This document shows positions 29,634 through 37,628 of a DNA stretch of 64,000 bases, piece after piece. Where the stretch lies: contig NZ_RCCC01000001.1 in assembly GCF_003663825.1 (NCBI RefSeq), positions 1,248,501 to 1,312,500 of the forward strand, written 5' to 3'. The position numbers and the translations under genes were made by a program. Source of the stretch: Acidovorax sp. 106 (GTDB lineage: Bacteria; Pseudomonadota; Gammaproteobacteria; Burkholderiales; Burkholderiaceae_C). Positions within the stretch are counted from its first letter, which is position 1. Each line of letters opens with the position of its first letter. The notes under the pieces were generated by a model. The model was not told the DNA's origin. It did no database searches and saw nothing but the letters and a program-made list of their open reading frames with translations.

Positions 29634-29756
29634 GGCCTGGCAGCACAGTCGCGCAGAAGTAGCGCAAAGCCGGGTCCGCAAACGACCGTCACGCAGGCGC
29701 CACGAGTGCCGCCCGGCAGCGGTGTAGCATGGCCGCCCATATTCAGGAGGAGACCC

Positions 29757-30245
29757 ATGCACCCCAACGCCCAGACCCTGCAACGCTTTTACACCGCCTT
29801 CAGCCAGCTCGACCACGCCACCATGTCCGCGTGCTACGCGCCAGATGCCACGTTTGAGGACGAAGCCTTCTCGCTCAAAGGCCGCGAACAGGTGGGCGGC
29901 ATGTGGCGCATGCTGTGCAGTGCCACCCAAAAGCCTGGCGCTGCCGAGCACTGGAAGCTGGAGTTCAGCGGCATCGAAGCCGACGCCAACGGCGGCCGCG
30001 CGCACTGGGAGGCGCACTACCTCTTCAGCGCCACCGGGCGCAAGGTGCACAACATCATCGACGGCACCTTCACCTTCACGCCCGACGGGCTCATCGCCAC
30101 GCACCGCGACCGCTTCAGCTTCTGGCGCTGGTCGCGCCAGGCCCTGGGCCTGCCGGGCGTGCTGCTGGGCTGGTCACCGTCGCTCAAGCGCAAGGTGCGC
30201 AGCACGGCGGCGGGGAATTTGAAGAAGTTTTTGGCGCAGGGGTGA
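29757..30245 (+). CDS. NTF2-like (SnoaL-type) protein
   Basis: A 162-residue protein with excellent ribosome site AGGAGGAG before the ATG. MHPNAQTLQRFYTAFSQLDH, MSACYAPDATFEDEAFSLKG and AHWEAHYLFSATGRKVHN fit the nuclear-transport-factor-2 fold of small binding proteins and isomerases. The C-terminal basic tail (SLKRKVRSTAAGNLKKFLAQ) is also seen in relatives. Substrate unknown. It stands alone, 123 bases after the repetitive secreted protein. Confidence 0.85.
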   Translation: MHPNAQTLQRFYTAFSQLDHATMSACYAPDATFEDEAFSLKGREQVGGMWRMLCSATQKPGAAEHWKLEFSGIEADANGGRAHWEAHYLFSATGRKVHNIIDGTFTFTPDGLIATHRDRFSFWRWSRQALGLPGVLLGWSPSLKRKVRSTAAGNLKKFLAQG

Positions 30246-30550
30246 TAGGGGCTGCGTGATGCAGCGCAGGGGTTGATGCACGGGGTCGGTGGCTATCGGC
30301 CAGGAGCAGGCAGTCGCGCCACCGGCACAATGCAGCCAGAACCGGTCGTCCACGCAAGATTACCGATGGGCTTCTAACAACTGCAAATCGGCGGAGATGA
30401 GGTCGAAGCAACTGGACAGATCGTCCAGTGCAGGGCCGCGCAATCTGCCTATGATGGACTCAAGGTGCGCCTTACCTGTTTCGCCTGGAGCCACCGGTCC
30501 CTGTAGATTGCGGACAGACGGGCTAACCGAACCCTATCCATCGACCGTAC
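30246..30550. other. Gap of about 300 bases without a recognised gene
   Basis: Mixed composition, lower GC than the flanks. It contains CTGGACAGATCGTCCAG (about 30411-30427), a short interrupted dyad, and nothing else I can support. It marks the left edge of the accessory region. Confidence 0.5.
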
Positions 30551-31112: not shown

Positions 31113-31460
31113 TTACCTGCGAGTTTCATGGCGCTTAGGATGGATGAGAAACGCAAACACTCCGACAACGATACATGCCATCAAGATCCAGACCGCCCAC
31201 AATGGCAATGCCAAAAACTGCAGTAACGCATAGCCGAGAACGAATGCCACAAAGGCAGACAGAGCAACATACCCAAGACACTCCCCGAAGCTGGGACCGC
31301 CTTTGCGATTGTTCCAGAGCTTGAAATAAATGAAGATCAACGGTGCCACTACAAGGACTCCGATTCCGTTTCCTGAGCAATCGCCGTAGCACGCACCACG
31401 AGCATGCACAGGAACTGCCGTGAGAGTGCCGAGTAGGAGCGCAATAGCGGTGCGTATCAC
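31113..31460 (-). CDS. Small membrane protein, unknown function
   Basis: A 115-residue protein with GTG start. The signal-like N-terminus IRTAIALLLGTLTAVPVHA is followed by CYGDCSGNG and three hydrophobic stretches (about 33-50, 62-85, 88-109). It ends with a basic tail PKRHETRR. Two Cys just after the signal could form a disulphide. I do not recognise the family. It may be an old cassette gene because a degenerate attC-like site follows it. Confidence 0.6.
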   Translation of the reverse strand: MIRTAIALLLGTLTAVPVHARGACYGDCSGNGIGVLVVAPLIFIYFKLWNNRKGGPSFGECLGYVALSAFVAFVLGYALLQFLALPLWAVWILMACIVVGVFAFLIHPKRHETRR

Positions 31461-31939
31461 GGCAAAGTGTCTTTCAATCGGGATAAGACCCGTACCAATT
31501 CGCAGGCCATATCTGGCGCTTACAGTCTAAATTGGCTCGGAAAAAGTGCTGCGATGGGCTTACAGCCTGGCGCTGCAGCACCTGTGCTATGTAGGAGCAA
31601 AGTGCCAAATTCAGCCATGAACCCCGCCGCCCCTCCTGTGTTGCGCGCGACACGGTTACTGGATCAGGTCCGTGAGCGCATTCGTTAAAAACACTGTAGC
31701 CCACGCGCCGAGCAGTACCGATGCCATCGGTCCCGTGCATCATCAAAGAACGGCTTAAAGGCTTTGATCTGAGCGGATGCTTTGGGCCCGCTGGAGCCAG
31801 TGCGCGTGCGGCAGAATGCGGCCAAGAGCAGACTTCGGCACCGGCTCTAAACGAGTGCCGCTAGCGGTACATCTAGATGCTCAAGAGCATCTAGACGAAG
31901 AGGCACTGAAGTTGTCGCCGACATTAACAATAGATCAGC
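31461..31939. other. 479-base gap without a supported gene
   Basis: Several short open frames occur on both strands (for example 31467-31688 plus and 31474-31746 minus), but none has a ribosome site or protein-like composition. The only clear structure is the 24-base palindrome at 31872. Confidence 0.5.
31872..31895. promoter_or_regulatory. Perfect 24-base inverted repeat upstream of the DUF6882-like gene
   Basis: TCTAGATGCTC-AA-GAGCATCTAGA: eleven base pairs with a two-base centre, ending 45 bases before the ATG at 31940. No T-run follows, so an operator is likelier than a terminator. No local regulator gene is known to match it. Confidence 0.5.
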
Positions 31940-34667: not shown

Positions 34668-34883
34668 CGCGCGGGGCACAAGGTGGGCAGCACCATCGAT
34701 GGCGACTCCTCCCCGACAGGCTGACCGCCCTCGTTCAAGTGCAAACAGGGAAGCACAGCGGCAGCGAATTGGAAGAAGTTTTGCGCAAAGACTATTGAGG
34801 GGGCGGCCCGATGCGGAGGGCGGAATGCTTTGGAACGGCGGCTTTCGGCCAGGAGCTGCCTGTGGAAGCGAATAGAAGCAGAC
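34668..34883. other. Gap before the cassette cluster
   Basis: About 215 bases after the 532-residue protein gene. Fragments such as GAATTGGAAGAAGTTTTGCG recall the end of other genes here (compare GAATTTGAAGAAGTTTTTGG at 30217, the NTF2-like C-terminus). It may be a remnant of a duplicated gene end. No complete gene. Confidence 0.4.
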
Positions 34884-34940
34884 GCTCAACGTTGGCGCTC
34901 AGCGGGCGGCGAAGCCGTCCGATGCAGCAAGGGGTTAAGT
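34884..34940. repeat. attC-like recombination site 1 (57 bases)
   Basis: GCTCAAC at 34884 and GTTAAGT at 34934 match the RYYYAAC and GTTRRRY core boxes of integron attC sites. Between them is an imperfect dyad CGGGCGGC-gaa-GCCGTCCG. The 57-base length equals the shortest usual attC. The minus-strand gene at 34945 ends five bases away, the normal gene-attC spacing. Confidence 0.68.
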
Positions 34941-34944
34941 CTCA

Positions 34945-35274
34945 TCATCCCAAACGCTCCTTAGTGCGACACCATGCAAACTCCATGAGCCCACCCAACT
35001 CCGGGTCAGGTTGTTGAAGCACAAGGCTAGCGATCGATTCTTGGAAGCTCCGCTCGCAGACGCCCCCAAGCGACTGAACCAAGCAGGCCAAGATTCTGTG
35101 CTGGATCTCATTGACGCTGCGCAATTGGCTGGGCTCGTCCAGTTCTTCGGTTTGTGGTCGATAACTGTTGCGGGCGACAACAGTGAGTTCGTGAGCCAAC
35201 GCAGCAAGGAAAAGTACTTTGCTCTCATGTGGCAATTCGGCGAGCCAATGACCCTCCTGTTTAACGCTTTGCAT
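34945..35274 (-). CDS. Cassette gene 1, hypothetical 109-residue protein
   Basis: Starts ten bases after the GTTAAGT core of attC site 2 and ends five bases before attC site 1, as integron cassette genes do. The protein (GHWLAELPHESKVLFLAALA; NEIQHRILACLVQSLGG) is helical and soluble. I recall similar proteins, with a ...SK..FLA.L.H.LT...R..Y... pattern, from cassette arrays and environmental genomes, where function is unknown. Base composition is lower in GC than the neighbouring core genes, as expected for acquired cassettes. Confidence 0.75.
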   Translation of the reverse strand: MQSVKQEGHWLAELPHESKVLFLAALAHELTVVARNSYRPQTEELDEPSQLRSVNEIQHRILACLVQSLGGVCERSFQESIASLVLQQPDPELGGLMEFAWCRTKERLG

Positions 35275-35283
35275 GTGGGTGAG

Positions 35284-35345
35284 ACTTAACGTCGGCGCTG
35301 TACGGCGGGCAACACCCGCCGCTTAGCGGCCTCATTTTGTTACCT
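35284..35345. repeat. attC-like recombination site 2 (62 bases)
   Basis: ACTTAAC at 35284 matches RYYYAAC and equals the reverse complement of a GTTAAGT core. The far box GTTACCT (35339) is imperfect. Between them GGCGGGCAACACCCGCC and GCCGCTTAGCGGC form strong overlapping dyads. It sits between two minus-strand genes. Confidence 0.6.
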
Positions 35346-35364
35346 GTCCGCTTCGAGCAAAGGG

Positions 35365-35703
35365 TCAAACATCACGTTTTACCTCTGCGAGGCGAACCTC
35401 TGAAAATCGCATTGCCATTGGGTCGCCTTGCACCTCAAGCGCACCGCTTTGTTCCAATTCAATGATGCGGACCGGCATGTAAACATACGGAAGATGAGGA
35501 AACTTCGCGTCGAACTCTTTCAATGAAGTTCCGACGACCATTGCCACCTTGCGCCAGCGCTCTGTGCAACTTTGCAGGATAAGTGCATCAACCGCTGCAG
35601 CGTCCGCTGCTGTCGCTTGCCGCATCTGCGCCAATTCCTCCGGCGTCGGTTCGTCGTCATTCTCTTCGTCGTCAGCGTCAAGTGGTTCTATTTGATCTGG
35701 CAT
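35365..35703 (-). CDS. Cassette gene 2, hypothetical 112-residue acidic protein
   Basis: Starts MPDQIEPLDADDEENDDEPT, an acidic N-terminus, followed by helical TPEELAQMRQATAADAAAVD and a compact end FPHLPYVYMPVRIIELEQSG. The C-terminal part resembles small proteins often annotated DUF3658; this is a tentative match. The ATG at 35703 is preferred although the frame is open further upstream through attC site 3. It lies between attC-like sites 3 and 2. No function can be assigned. Confidence 0.72.
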   Translation of the reverse strand: MPDQIEPLDADDEENDDEPTPEELAQMRQATAADAAAVDALILQSCTERWRKVAMVVGTSLKEFDAKFPHLPYVYMPVRIIELEQSGALEVQGDPMAMRFSEVRLAEVKRDV

Positions 35704-35730
35704 GGTTTGATGGCGATGGGTGGCAGTGAG

Positions 35731-35832
35731 GTTTAACGTTGGCCGTGAGTGGACCGCAACGGCGCACTCAGCATTGAAGAATAGCGACCACGTCGGCCGC
35801 CGTTGTGGGTCCAATCGACGAACCTGTTAGAC
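35731..35832. repeat. attC-like recombination site 3 (102 bases)
   Basis: GTTTAAC at 35731 and GTTAGAC at 35826 match RYYYAAC and GTTRRRY. Inside, TGGACCGCAACGGCG pairs imperfectly with GCCGTTGTGGGTCCA, giving a long stem. The stop codon of the minus-strand gene above lies within the GTTAGAC box (TAA on the minus strand), a common trait of integron cassettes. Confidence 0.72.
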
Positions 35833-36087
35833 ATTGCCACCGCCTTTCGCCCGCCATCTGTGGACCGCAATTGGTAGGACGCCAAGTAAGCCCGCAGTCG
35901 AAACAACAGCAACGGAAAAAGCAAAAACTGCTTCGGCCGCGGTTTGCCACGTGTCCATGGAATCTCCGTTTTGGAGCCTATATTCACTCGCGAACGCGAT
36001 CACGGCGTAAGCGCAGAAAGCGCCCAGAAGACATCCGACCACCAGTGGGCCAATCAGTGTTTGCTTCTCTGAAGGCGATAGCGTCAT
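35827..36087 (-). CDS. Cassette gene 3, small membrane protein
   Basis: An 86-residue protein with two membrane segments: LIGPLVVGCLLGAFCAYAVI (about 11-32) and VFAFSVAVVSTAGLLGVLPI (about 54-75). It ends with a basic tail HRWRAKGGGNV. Starts seven bases after a GTTAGAC core (36094-36100 reversed), and its stop lies inside attC site 3, so boundaries fit a cassette exactly. Family unknown. Being first in minus-strand order, it is the most recent insertion if this was an active array. Confidence 0.7.
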   Translation of the reverse strand: MTLSPSEKQTLIGPLVVGCLLGAFCAYAVIAFASEYRLQNGDSMDTWQTAAEAVFAFSVAVVSTAGLLGVLPIAVHRWRAKGGGNV

Positions 36088-36093
36088 TGCACT

Positions 36094-36180
36094 GTCTAAC
36101 GTGATGTACCCCGCAAAACCTGCGGGATAAATTGGACCGTGCGGGATATTCTGGACACTGATTTCTCCTGGAGTTGGCTT
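36094..36180. other. attI-like or degenerate attC boundary of the cassette cluster
   Basis: GTCTAAC at 36094 is the reverse of a GTTAGAC core and marks the start of cassette gene 3. Beyond it a hairpin CCCGCA-AAACC-TGCGGG (36108-36124) occurs, but no good second core; GTTGGCT near 36173 is poor. It could be an attI-like end. No integrase gene lies beside it: the rest of 36102-36506 is a gene-free stretch of 405 bases ending in the repeat module at 36350. Confidence 0.4.
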
Positions 36181-36349
36181 GCAGCATAGGTTTGCAAGGG
36201 ACGACCTGTTCAAACGTCCAGGTATAAAAATTCTGCAAAACCCGGCACGCGTCAACTCGGCAAACTATAGCTCGCCAGCCAGCAGACACCGGGATTTCCA
36301 ACAGCCACTGCAGCAAGTCAATGGCGGCTTCCGGGTGGCGCTTATGAGC

Positions 36350-36500
36350 GGCGGCTCAGGGCCCAAAGCGCCCCATTACAACTCCAGTTCAGCCGCTGCG
36401 CCATTTCCACCTTCGGCGCACAGCGCGCCCCAATACGAAGCAAAAAATGGCACCAGCGCTTAATTTATAAGCGCTGGAAGCTATCAAATAAATAGCAAAT
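36350..36500. repeat. ~150-base module ending in an AGCGCTT repeat
   Basis: Begins CTCAGGGCCCAAAGCGCCCC and ends with a complete AGCGCTT repeat at 36440-36500 (CACCAGCGCTT-aatttat-AAGCGCTGGAAGCTATC then AAATAAATAGCAA). It aligns loosely with 32777-32918 over its whole length. The two modules flank the cassette cluster in the same orientation. Confidence 0.6.
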
Positions 36501-36506
36501 CTATTC

Positions 36507-37361
<855 letters not shown>

Positions 37362-37628
37362 GGATAAGGCTCCGGTAGGGACAGAGGGCGCGGCAGCACG
37401 CGGTGGCGGCAAAGCTCTTATGATGGGTTGCGCCTGCCGGCCAGATGGACCAGCGCACACCGCGCCAACACGGCGGGCGCACCACCAGCGCACAGCATGC
37501 ACTCAGCAAACAAGGCCCGCACATGCCAGCAGCCCGAGGGCGCCAAGCCGCCCCGAAATCGCTTGGCACATGCCGCGCCGAGGCGGCGAGTGTAGCCCGC
37601 TGGGACTCCAACCCCTCAGGCCACGCCC

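What the first reader, a model, noticed from the sequence alone, without database searches (positions are those of the whole stretch)
34884..36100. Three gene cassettes separated by attC-like sites, with no integrase
Three small minus-strand genes (34945, 35365, 35827) are each followed by a site with RYYYAAC...GTTRRRY cores: GCTCAAC/GTTAAGT (34884-34940, 57 bases), ACTTAAC/GTTACCT (35284-35345), GTTTAAC/GTTAGAC (35731-35832). A fourth core (GTCTAAC, 36094) precedes cassette gene 3. The stop of cassette gene 3 lies inside a core box and starts fall 7-10 bases after cores for genes 1 and 3, as in real cassettes. No tyrosine recombinase gene is in the window. This fits a cluster of attC sites lacking an integrase, or an array whose intI was lost. 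The cassette proteins are of unknown function and could be new.
Basis: partly seen in the sequence, partly recalled or inferred. Interest (0 to 1): 0.7.

Follow-up and report, generated by a model that had tools for sequence, protein, structure and literature searches.

The report
Integrase-less integron with its own attI
The three small genes are real integron gene cassettes sitting behind a 275-base integration site that has no integrase and recurs at many chromosomal places in the genus; at some of these places close relatives carry different cassettes, so an integrase made elsewhere probably swaps them.

Summary
The cassettes are real. A covariance model trained on 20 attC sites from other genomes finds site 1 (E 1e-10) and site 3 (E 3e-6) in the window. 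It misses site 2, which rests on a relative (G026) carrying cassettes 2+1 at 98.4% identity, cut exactly at the cores, in another array.

The 'fourth core' ends a 275-bp leader (36096-36371): an attI with a LexA-like box and an intI stub, integrase missing. A conserved ~50-bp end follows the last attC. The leader is a dispersed repeat: 127 matches, fragments included, in 36 of 47 genus genomes (Acidovorax). Of 64 copies examined, 46 have a same-strand attC within 4 kb; 67 of 73 solo copies share a junction absent from two intI-linked ones. In one strain pair an orthologous copy (flank 97%, leader 95% identical) holds different cassettes exactly between attI core and last attC core. The window also holds a decayed second integron (intI remnant, 31584-31760).

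Best reading: one of a family of solo-attI, integrase-less integrons exchanging cassettes through IntI supplied in trans. How the leader spreads is open.

The parts
36096..36371 (-). Solo attI leader: attI with two ~19-bp direct repeats (seen by eye), LexA-like box (CTGG-N8-ACAG here), 5' stub of intI with its start codon lost, palindrome GCGAGCTATAGTTTGC, and GGGCCC-centred left-end hairpin (36350-36372)
   Evidence: Dispersed repeat, 127 matches (fragments and this copy included) in 36 of 47 genus genomes; attI half lies directly upstream of intact intI in G015 and G024; conservation falls directly after the GTT core
36094..36100 (-). attI core (GTTAGAC on the cassette strand), the point where cassettes join
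   Evidence: sequence; alignment of leader copies
35827..36087 (-). cassette 3 gene, 86 aa, hydrophobic stretches by eye; stop codon inside the R'' core
   Evidence: no Pfam family above its cut-off
35731..35832 (-). attC of cassette 3
   Evidence: covariance model 29.4 bits, E 2.8e-6; 85-90% identical to three sites in G022 and one in G043
35365..35703 (-). cassette 2 gene, 112 aa, DUF3658
   Evidence: PF12395 31.1 bits, cut-off 23.3; 65 proteins at E up to 0.001
35284..35345 (-). attC of cassette 2 (degenerate R'' box)
   Evidence: not found by the covariance model; present at 97% in G026; 75% similar site in own L026
34945..35274 (-). cassette 1 gene, 109 aa, five-helix model, function unknown
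   Evidence: 22 database matches; pLDDT 95.9; best PDB match E 0.57
34884..34940 (-). attC of cassette 1, last of the array
   Evidence: covariance model 44.6 bits, E 1.2e-10
34841..34893 (-). conserved right end of the unit (AACGTTGAGCG... plus GGCC hairpin), read as the displaced right half of the original attI (inference)
   Evidence: similar ~50-bp sequence directly after the terminal attC in many arrays, including the intact-intI array of G026
31584..31760 (+). intI 5' remnant (pseudogene) of a second, decayed integron; homologous DNA 31490-31715 includes a decayed attI
   Evidence: tblastn 60% over 60 aa, E 1.6e-13; 82% and 79% nucleotide identity to intact intI/attI loci of G012 and G026
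31113..31460 (-). gene at the cassette position of the decayed integron (115 aa, hydrophobic stretches by eye)
   Evidence: position next to the decayed attI; no attC found beside it by the model
30291..30311 (+). GGCC-centred hairpin at the outer edge of the decayed integron
   Evidence: motif scan; assignment is inference
31779..31798 (+). GGGCCC-centred hairpin on the intI side of the decayed integron
   Evidence: sequence; similar hairpin downstream of intI in G026 and G040
36507..37502 (-). flank: UPF0149/SEC-C gene, core gene beside the hotspot (start as listed mechanically; the true start may be internal)
   Evidence: long match in 46 of 47 genus genomes, own included (G008 has only short matches); PF03695
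29706..30245 (+). flank: conserved 179-aa gene on the other side of the hotspot
   Evidence: about 160 bp from the UPF0149 gene in G010 and G023

Best explanation
The locus is an integrase-less integron that has kept its attI: left-end hairpin, intI-deleted leader with attI, three cassettes, conserved right end. It works as an integron platform in trans: an IntI made elsewhere (a resident intI at another locus, or one present in the recent past or acquired) joins cassettes at the solo attI core and excises them at attC. SHOWN by comparison: real attC sites; an attI leader followed by different cassettes in many copies; exact cassette boundaries in G026; complete cassette replacement at an orthologous solo-attI locus between close relatives; no intI above the family cut-off in this complete genome. 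INFERRED: that IntI did this in trans; that the leader acts as attI biochemically; that cassettes are expressed from it. The shared junction upstream of the solo attI suggests that most copies descend from one intI-deleted ancestor that then spread; how it spread is unknown.
For: attC model hits at two of three sites. G026 4.59-Mb array: leader, other cassette, cassettes 2+1 (853 bp, 98.4% identical, window 35740 to 34888), other cassette, right end, while the core UPF0149 gene is 95.4% identical. 46 of 64 leader copies have a same-strand attC (E up to 0.1) within 4 kb; of 79 attC hits, 73 lie downstream and same-strand of the nearest leader, 0 downstream and opposite. L095/L097 (G015/G016): flank 97.2% and leader 95.0% identical; identity falls to about 0.3 at the attI core and returns to 1.0 over 40 bp exactly at the terminal AACGTTGAGC; three model attC sites in about 2.2 kb against one in about 0.6 kb. 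G015 has intact intI; G016 keeps only its 3' part at the orthologous locus. Own complete genome: no intI above the cut-off. 27 of 36 leader-bearing genomes have no intI above the cut-off. Shared junction in 67 of 73 solo copies, 0 of 2 intI-linked. 64 upstream flanks fall into 55 clusters.
Against: 18 of 64 leaders have no attC within 4 kb by the model (2 of them had under 1.5 kb available). Of the 46, two (in L029 and L042) share their only attC with a nearer leader, and 8 rest only on sites used to train the model, so 38 remain without training sites (hand count); 17 of the 79 hits are training sites and one more is a training site in overlapping DNA. Model site 2 is missing. 6 of 73 solo copies lack the junction, and the intI-linked comparison rests on two loci. 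Absence of intI is uncertain in draft genomes. No sigma-70-like promoter was found in the leader. In this genome no functional integrase was found, so current activity is not expected. No target-site duplication or clean empty site was established. Not every orthologous pair shows turnover: L099/L102 have the same cassettes.
Confidence: 0.8

Rival explanations
1. Ordinary decay: a sedentary chromosomal integron at the UPF0149 hotspot lost intI in place, and the other leader copies are likewise independently decayed integrons.
For: G040 has an intI pseudogene at this very locus; the window holds an intI remnant; G016 lacks the 5' part of intI at the locus where G015 has it intact.
Against: Solo copies share one junction (67 of 73), not seen in the two intI-linked copies; the window's intI remnant has an attI of the G026 type (74.7%), not of the leader type; 55 flank clusters for 64 copies.
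Confidence: 0.25
2. A cassette cluster without attI: cassettes inserted at secondary genomic sites (attG type) by an integrase, forming a plain CALIN.
For: CALINs at several loci are described in Xanthomonas, with attG insertion discussed (PMC12444791, passages).
Against: A conserved attI leader ends exactly at the first cassette, and a conserved right end follows the last attC.
Confidence: 0.04
3. The whole unit (left end, attI, cassettes, right end) moves by a transposon- or MITE-like process with hairpin ends, and IntI plays little part in its distribution.
For: Ends resemble inverted repeats: GCTTTGGGCCCTGAGCCGCC against GCTTTCGGCCAGGAGCTGCC in the window, 16 of 20 by eye; many contexts; head-to-head leaders and a right end running into a left end.
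Against: No transposase or target duplication identified (none was searched for systematically); similar GGCC hairpins bound non-integron modules at the same hotspot; cassette replacement within a fixed locus needs cassette-level recombination as well.
Confidence: 0.3
4. Chance attC-like hairpins between ordinary small genes.
For: The bare motif is only marginally enriched, and pairing energy alone does not discriminate.
Against: Covariance-model E-values of 1e-10 and 3e-6 (E-values rough) and exact cassette boundaries in G026.
Confidence: 0.01

Closest known systems
[quoted passage not shown] IntegronFinder 2.0, PMC9024848, passages)
   Same: attC array with no neighbouring intI; proposed there to be degraded integrons, and said to be mobilizable in trans by a functional IntI in PMC12444791 (passages)
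   Different: has its own attI leader and a conserved right end, and belongs to a dispersed multi-copy family sharing one intI-deleted junction
Xanthomonas chromosomal integron at ilvD with CALINs at other loci (PMC12444791, passages)
   Same: genus-wide platform, progressive loss of intI activity, extra arrays elsewhere
   Different: no attI-bearing dispersed leader was mentioned in the passages read; here the extra arrays carry attI
Complete integrons of G015 (Acidovorax sp. NO-1) and G026
   Same: attI beside the intI start; G015 has a LexA box and the leader-type attI; G026 shows the same right end and a left-end hairpin after intI
   Different: these carry intact intI; the solo leaders do not
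MITEs and other non-autonomous deletion derivatives (recalled)
   Same: short, dispersed, derived by internal deletion from an element with a recombinase gene
   Different: no transposase or target duplication shown; the element carries an attI

Membership tests
Integron gene cassettes | attC sites with R''/R' and L''/L' pairing and covariation | tested here: met
   two of three sites by model; site 2 not found, supported by homology and position only
Integron gene cassettes | cassettes move as units bounded by the cores | tested here: met
   G026, 853 bp core to core; L095/L097
Complete integron | intact intI next to attI | tested here: not met
   none above cut-off in the complete genome; 5' remnant only, at another attI
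Complete integron | attI adjacent to the first cassette | tested here: met
   leader homologous to intI-linked attI and ends at the core; activity not tested
Complete integron | Pc promoter driving cassettes | tested here: inconclusive
   no sigma-70-like site by simple scan
CALIN | two or more attC sites without neighbouring intI | tested here: met
   an intI 5' remnant lies about 3 kb beyond the last attC
MITE / transposon | terminal inverted repeats | tested here: inconclusive
   similar hairpins at both ends, left arm of the left end poorly conserved
MITE / transposon | target-site duplication and clean empty site | not tested
   the hotspot differs in content in many relatives; outer unit ends not defined to the base

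The most novel reading that the evidence does not exclude
Satellite integrons: attI itself has become a dispersed, non-autonomous element. One intI-deleted attI leader with hairpin ends spread to many chromosomal sites in Acidovorax and related genera, and a single integrase (resident, or acquired now and then) serves many platforms in trans, so a genome runs a distributed integron with several parallel first-cassette positions; the GGCC hairpins at the unit ends could themselves be recombination sites.
Probability: 0.3. Interest if true: 0.85.

Novelty: new variant of a known kind. Interest (0 to 1): 0.66.

Why it matters
Integrase-less cassette arrays are common and usually read as debris. 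Here such arrays keep an integration site, recur at many positions, and in some close relatives differ in cassette content at the same position, so they look like working slots filled by an integrase encoded elsewhere. That makes it testable whether one integrase serves several attI sites, and it would give such a genome several leader-proximal cassette positions instead of one. The leader and right-end sequences give a simple handle for finding such arrays, including one-cassette arrays below the default CALIN threshold of two attC sites.

Tried and rejected
Rfam at gathering thresholds gave nothing in the window. Motif counts and pairing scans did not separate attC sites from background, so a covariance model was built instead. 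The TIGR02249 matches in the own genome lie well below the cut-off in two open frames of 331 aa (model 13-181 and 242-303) and 378 aa (239-308); I read them as XerC/XerD-like (recalled, not tested). The whole-genome attC scan is incomplete: it scored 150 of 4742 candidates and did not list site 3, which the window search finds; besides the window it listed five places, three of them beside leader copies. Cassette 1 has no match in the plasmid collection at E 1e-5. PADLOC gave no match for seven proteins. PDB sequence and fold searches for cassette 1 gave nothing significant. A sigma-70-like promoter in the leader was not found. The idea that the GGCC hairpins are specific to integron units was dropped: similar hairpins bound other modules at the hotspot. 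Target-site duplications were not pursued because outer ends are not defined to the base. Nine literature searches for dispersed or orphan attI, Acidovorax integrons and the like were judged from titles and starts of abstracts and showed no paper on it; two papers were seen in passages only.

Full report
Setting. The window is G000:C1:1248501-1312500 of a complete 4.88-Mb single-contig genome.

The observation. The motif by itself is weak (2 found, 0.51 expected, 6 of 100 shuffles with at least 2), and pairing energy alone is not discriminating in this GC-rich DNA. I therefore built a covariance model from 20 terminal attC sites of other genomes. The structure covaries (score 0.308 against 0.133 in shuffles; slid versions at most 0.092), although two of the five measures do not exceed the shuffles. 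In the window the model finds site 1 (34884-34940, E 1.2e-10) and site 3 (35731-35832, E 2.8e-6) on the cassette strand with the predicted ends; the third hit has E 0.05. Site 2 is missed; its R'' box is degenerate.

Cassettes move as units. In the relative G026 a different array at 4.59 Mb carries cassettes 2 and 1 as one 853-bp block, 98.4% identical, running from core to core (window 35740 to 34888), flanked by two other cassettes. The core UPF0149 gene is 95.4% identical between the same genomes, so the block was exchanged after the lineages split or has evolved unusually slowly.

The leader. It has 127 matches, this copy and short fragments included, in 36 of 47 genus genomes, with at most 16 candidates scored per genome. 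The own genome holds five copies and one 61-bp fragment. In G015 and G024 the attI half lies directly upstream of an intact intI. The leader keeps the position of the intI start, but in the window the ATG is lost. A LexA-like box (CTGT-N8-ACAG) is present with at most one mismatch in 41 of 63 aligned copies (two of them intI-linked), against 2 of 63 in one shuffle of each. Most attI positions are conserved in 80% of copies or more, and conservation falls directly after the GTT core. Two ~19-bp direct repeats precede the core, which recalls the repeats of attI1 (recalled).

Behind the leader are cassettes. Of 64 leader copies examined (those fetched, mostly the best-scoring), 46 have a same-strand model attC (E up to 0.1) within 4 kb; two of these share it with a nearer leader, and 38 remain if the 17 model-training sites are left out (hand count). 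Of 79 attC hits, 73 are downstream and on the same strand as the nearest leader, 1 upstream same-strand, 4 upstream opposite, 1 in a locus without a counted leader, 0 downstream opposite. After the last attC many arrays share a ~50-bp right end, also present in the intact-intI array of G026; in the window it is 34893 to 34841. I read it as the displaced right half of the original attI (inference).

Integrase. This genome has no intI above the cut-off. It has two 5' remnants: window 31584-31760 and C1 about 521496-521615. In the genus, 12 of 47 genomes reach the cut-off, one of them (G043) through a frame with a stop. Of the 36 leader-bearing genomes, 27 have none above the cut-off; many are drafts.

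Turnover at a solo attI. Five groups of leader copies share orthologous upstream flanks between genomes. In the pair L095/L097 (G015/G016), flank 97.2% and leader 95.0% identical, similarity ends at the attI core and resumes, at 100% over 40 bp, exactly at the terminal AACGTTGAGC; one array holds three model attC sites in 2.2 kb, the other one in 0.6 kb. G015 has intact intI; in G016 the orthologous locus keeps a piece of attI joined to the 3' part of intI (98.2% identical). The other groups: L099/L102 have the same cassettes (99.1% flank); L035/L110 show no downstream match; L081/L085 only a 94-bp distal one; L109/L113 differ proximally and re-converge; the comparisons with L088 had only 151 bp downstream. 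A further locus in the own genome and G026 has 90-95% identical flanks, diverged leaders and different cassettes.

Origin of the solo leaders. A 16-bp palindrome (GCAAGCTATAGTTTGC, up to 3 mismatches) lies upstream in 67 of 73 solo copies and in 0 of 2 intI-linked copies. The 73 include five copies from three other genera of the family, all with the palindrome; these were the best-scoring loci, where many matches in other genera stop short of it. This argues for one intI-deleted ancestor that spread rather than many independent losses, though only two intI-linked copies could be compared. The family search matched 33 of 299 genomes and 23 of 141 genera, own genus included, with only two candidates scored per genome. 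Sixty-four upstream flanks (2.2 kb) fall into 55 clusters, some of which are neighbours in one locus. How the leader moves is unknown: both ends are GGCC-centred hairpins resembling each other, head-to-head leader pairs share a palindromic centre, and in G030 an intI lies between two divergent arrays, but similar hairpins also bound other modules.

The hotspot. The UPF0149 gene and the 179-aa gene at 29706-30245 are about 160 bp apart in G010 and G023 and further apart, with other genes between, in many of the 40 loci fetched; in some the second gene was not found within the stretch. G040 has an intI pseudogene there and G009 two leader units in the opposite orientation. In the window the 6.2-kb insert holds the decayed integron (about 30.3-31.8 kb), a DUF6882 gene, a 532-aa gene and the solo-attI unit.

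What is known. CALINs are defined as attC clusters without intI and proposed to be degraded integrons (PMC9024848, passages); they are said to be mobilizable in trans by a functional IntI (PMC12444791, passages). Nine searches of an open-access library showed, from titles and starts of abstracts, no paper on attI-bearing integrase-less arrays dispersed in a genome; most subscription papers are not in that library.

Verdict. Genuine gene cassettes on an integrase-less but attI-bearing platform, one of a dispersed family. Action of IntI in trans is the best explanation of the comparative pattern but is not shown biochemically.

Noticed in passing
window 31490-31760: Second, decayed integron: attI and the first codons of intI of the G026 attI type (75%), with a gene at the cassette position, 31113-31460.
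   Followed up: partly
window 30292, 31779, 32775, 34841, 36354: GGCC-centred hairpins lie between the modules of the hotspot, including non-integron genes (DUF6882, 532-aa protein); similar hairpins flank variable genes at this locus in some relatives.
   Followed up: partly
L096 (G030:C164), L092, L094: Bidirectional arrangements: one intI between two divergent attI/cassette arrays, and head-to-head solo leaders sharing a palindromic centre.
   Followed up: partly
L218 against L211: Close relatives G015 and G016 differ at the same locus: intact intI in one, attI joined to the 3' part of intI in the other, a snapshot of integrase loss.
   Followed up: yes
window about 36438-36500: A short repeat (about 60 bp, GCGCTTAATTTATAAGCGCTGGAAGCTATCAAATAAATAGCAAA type) beside the UPF0149 gene recurs in many genus genomes.
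   Followed up: no
leader copies, cassette strand: The LexA-like half-sites and the palindrome stay conserved in leaders that have no intI, which may mean a retained regulatory role or a short transcript.
   Followed up: no
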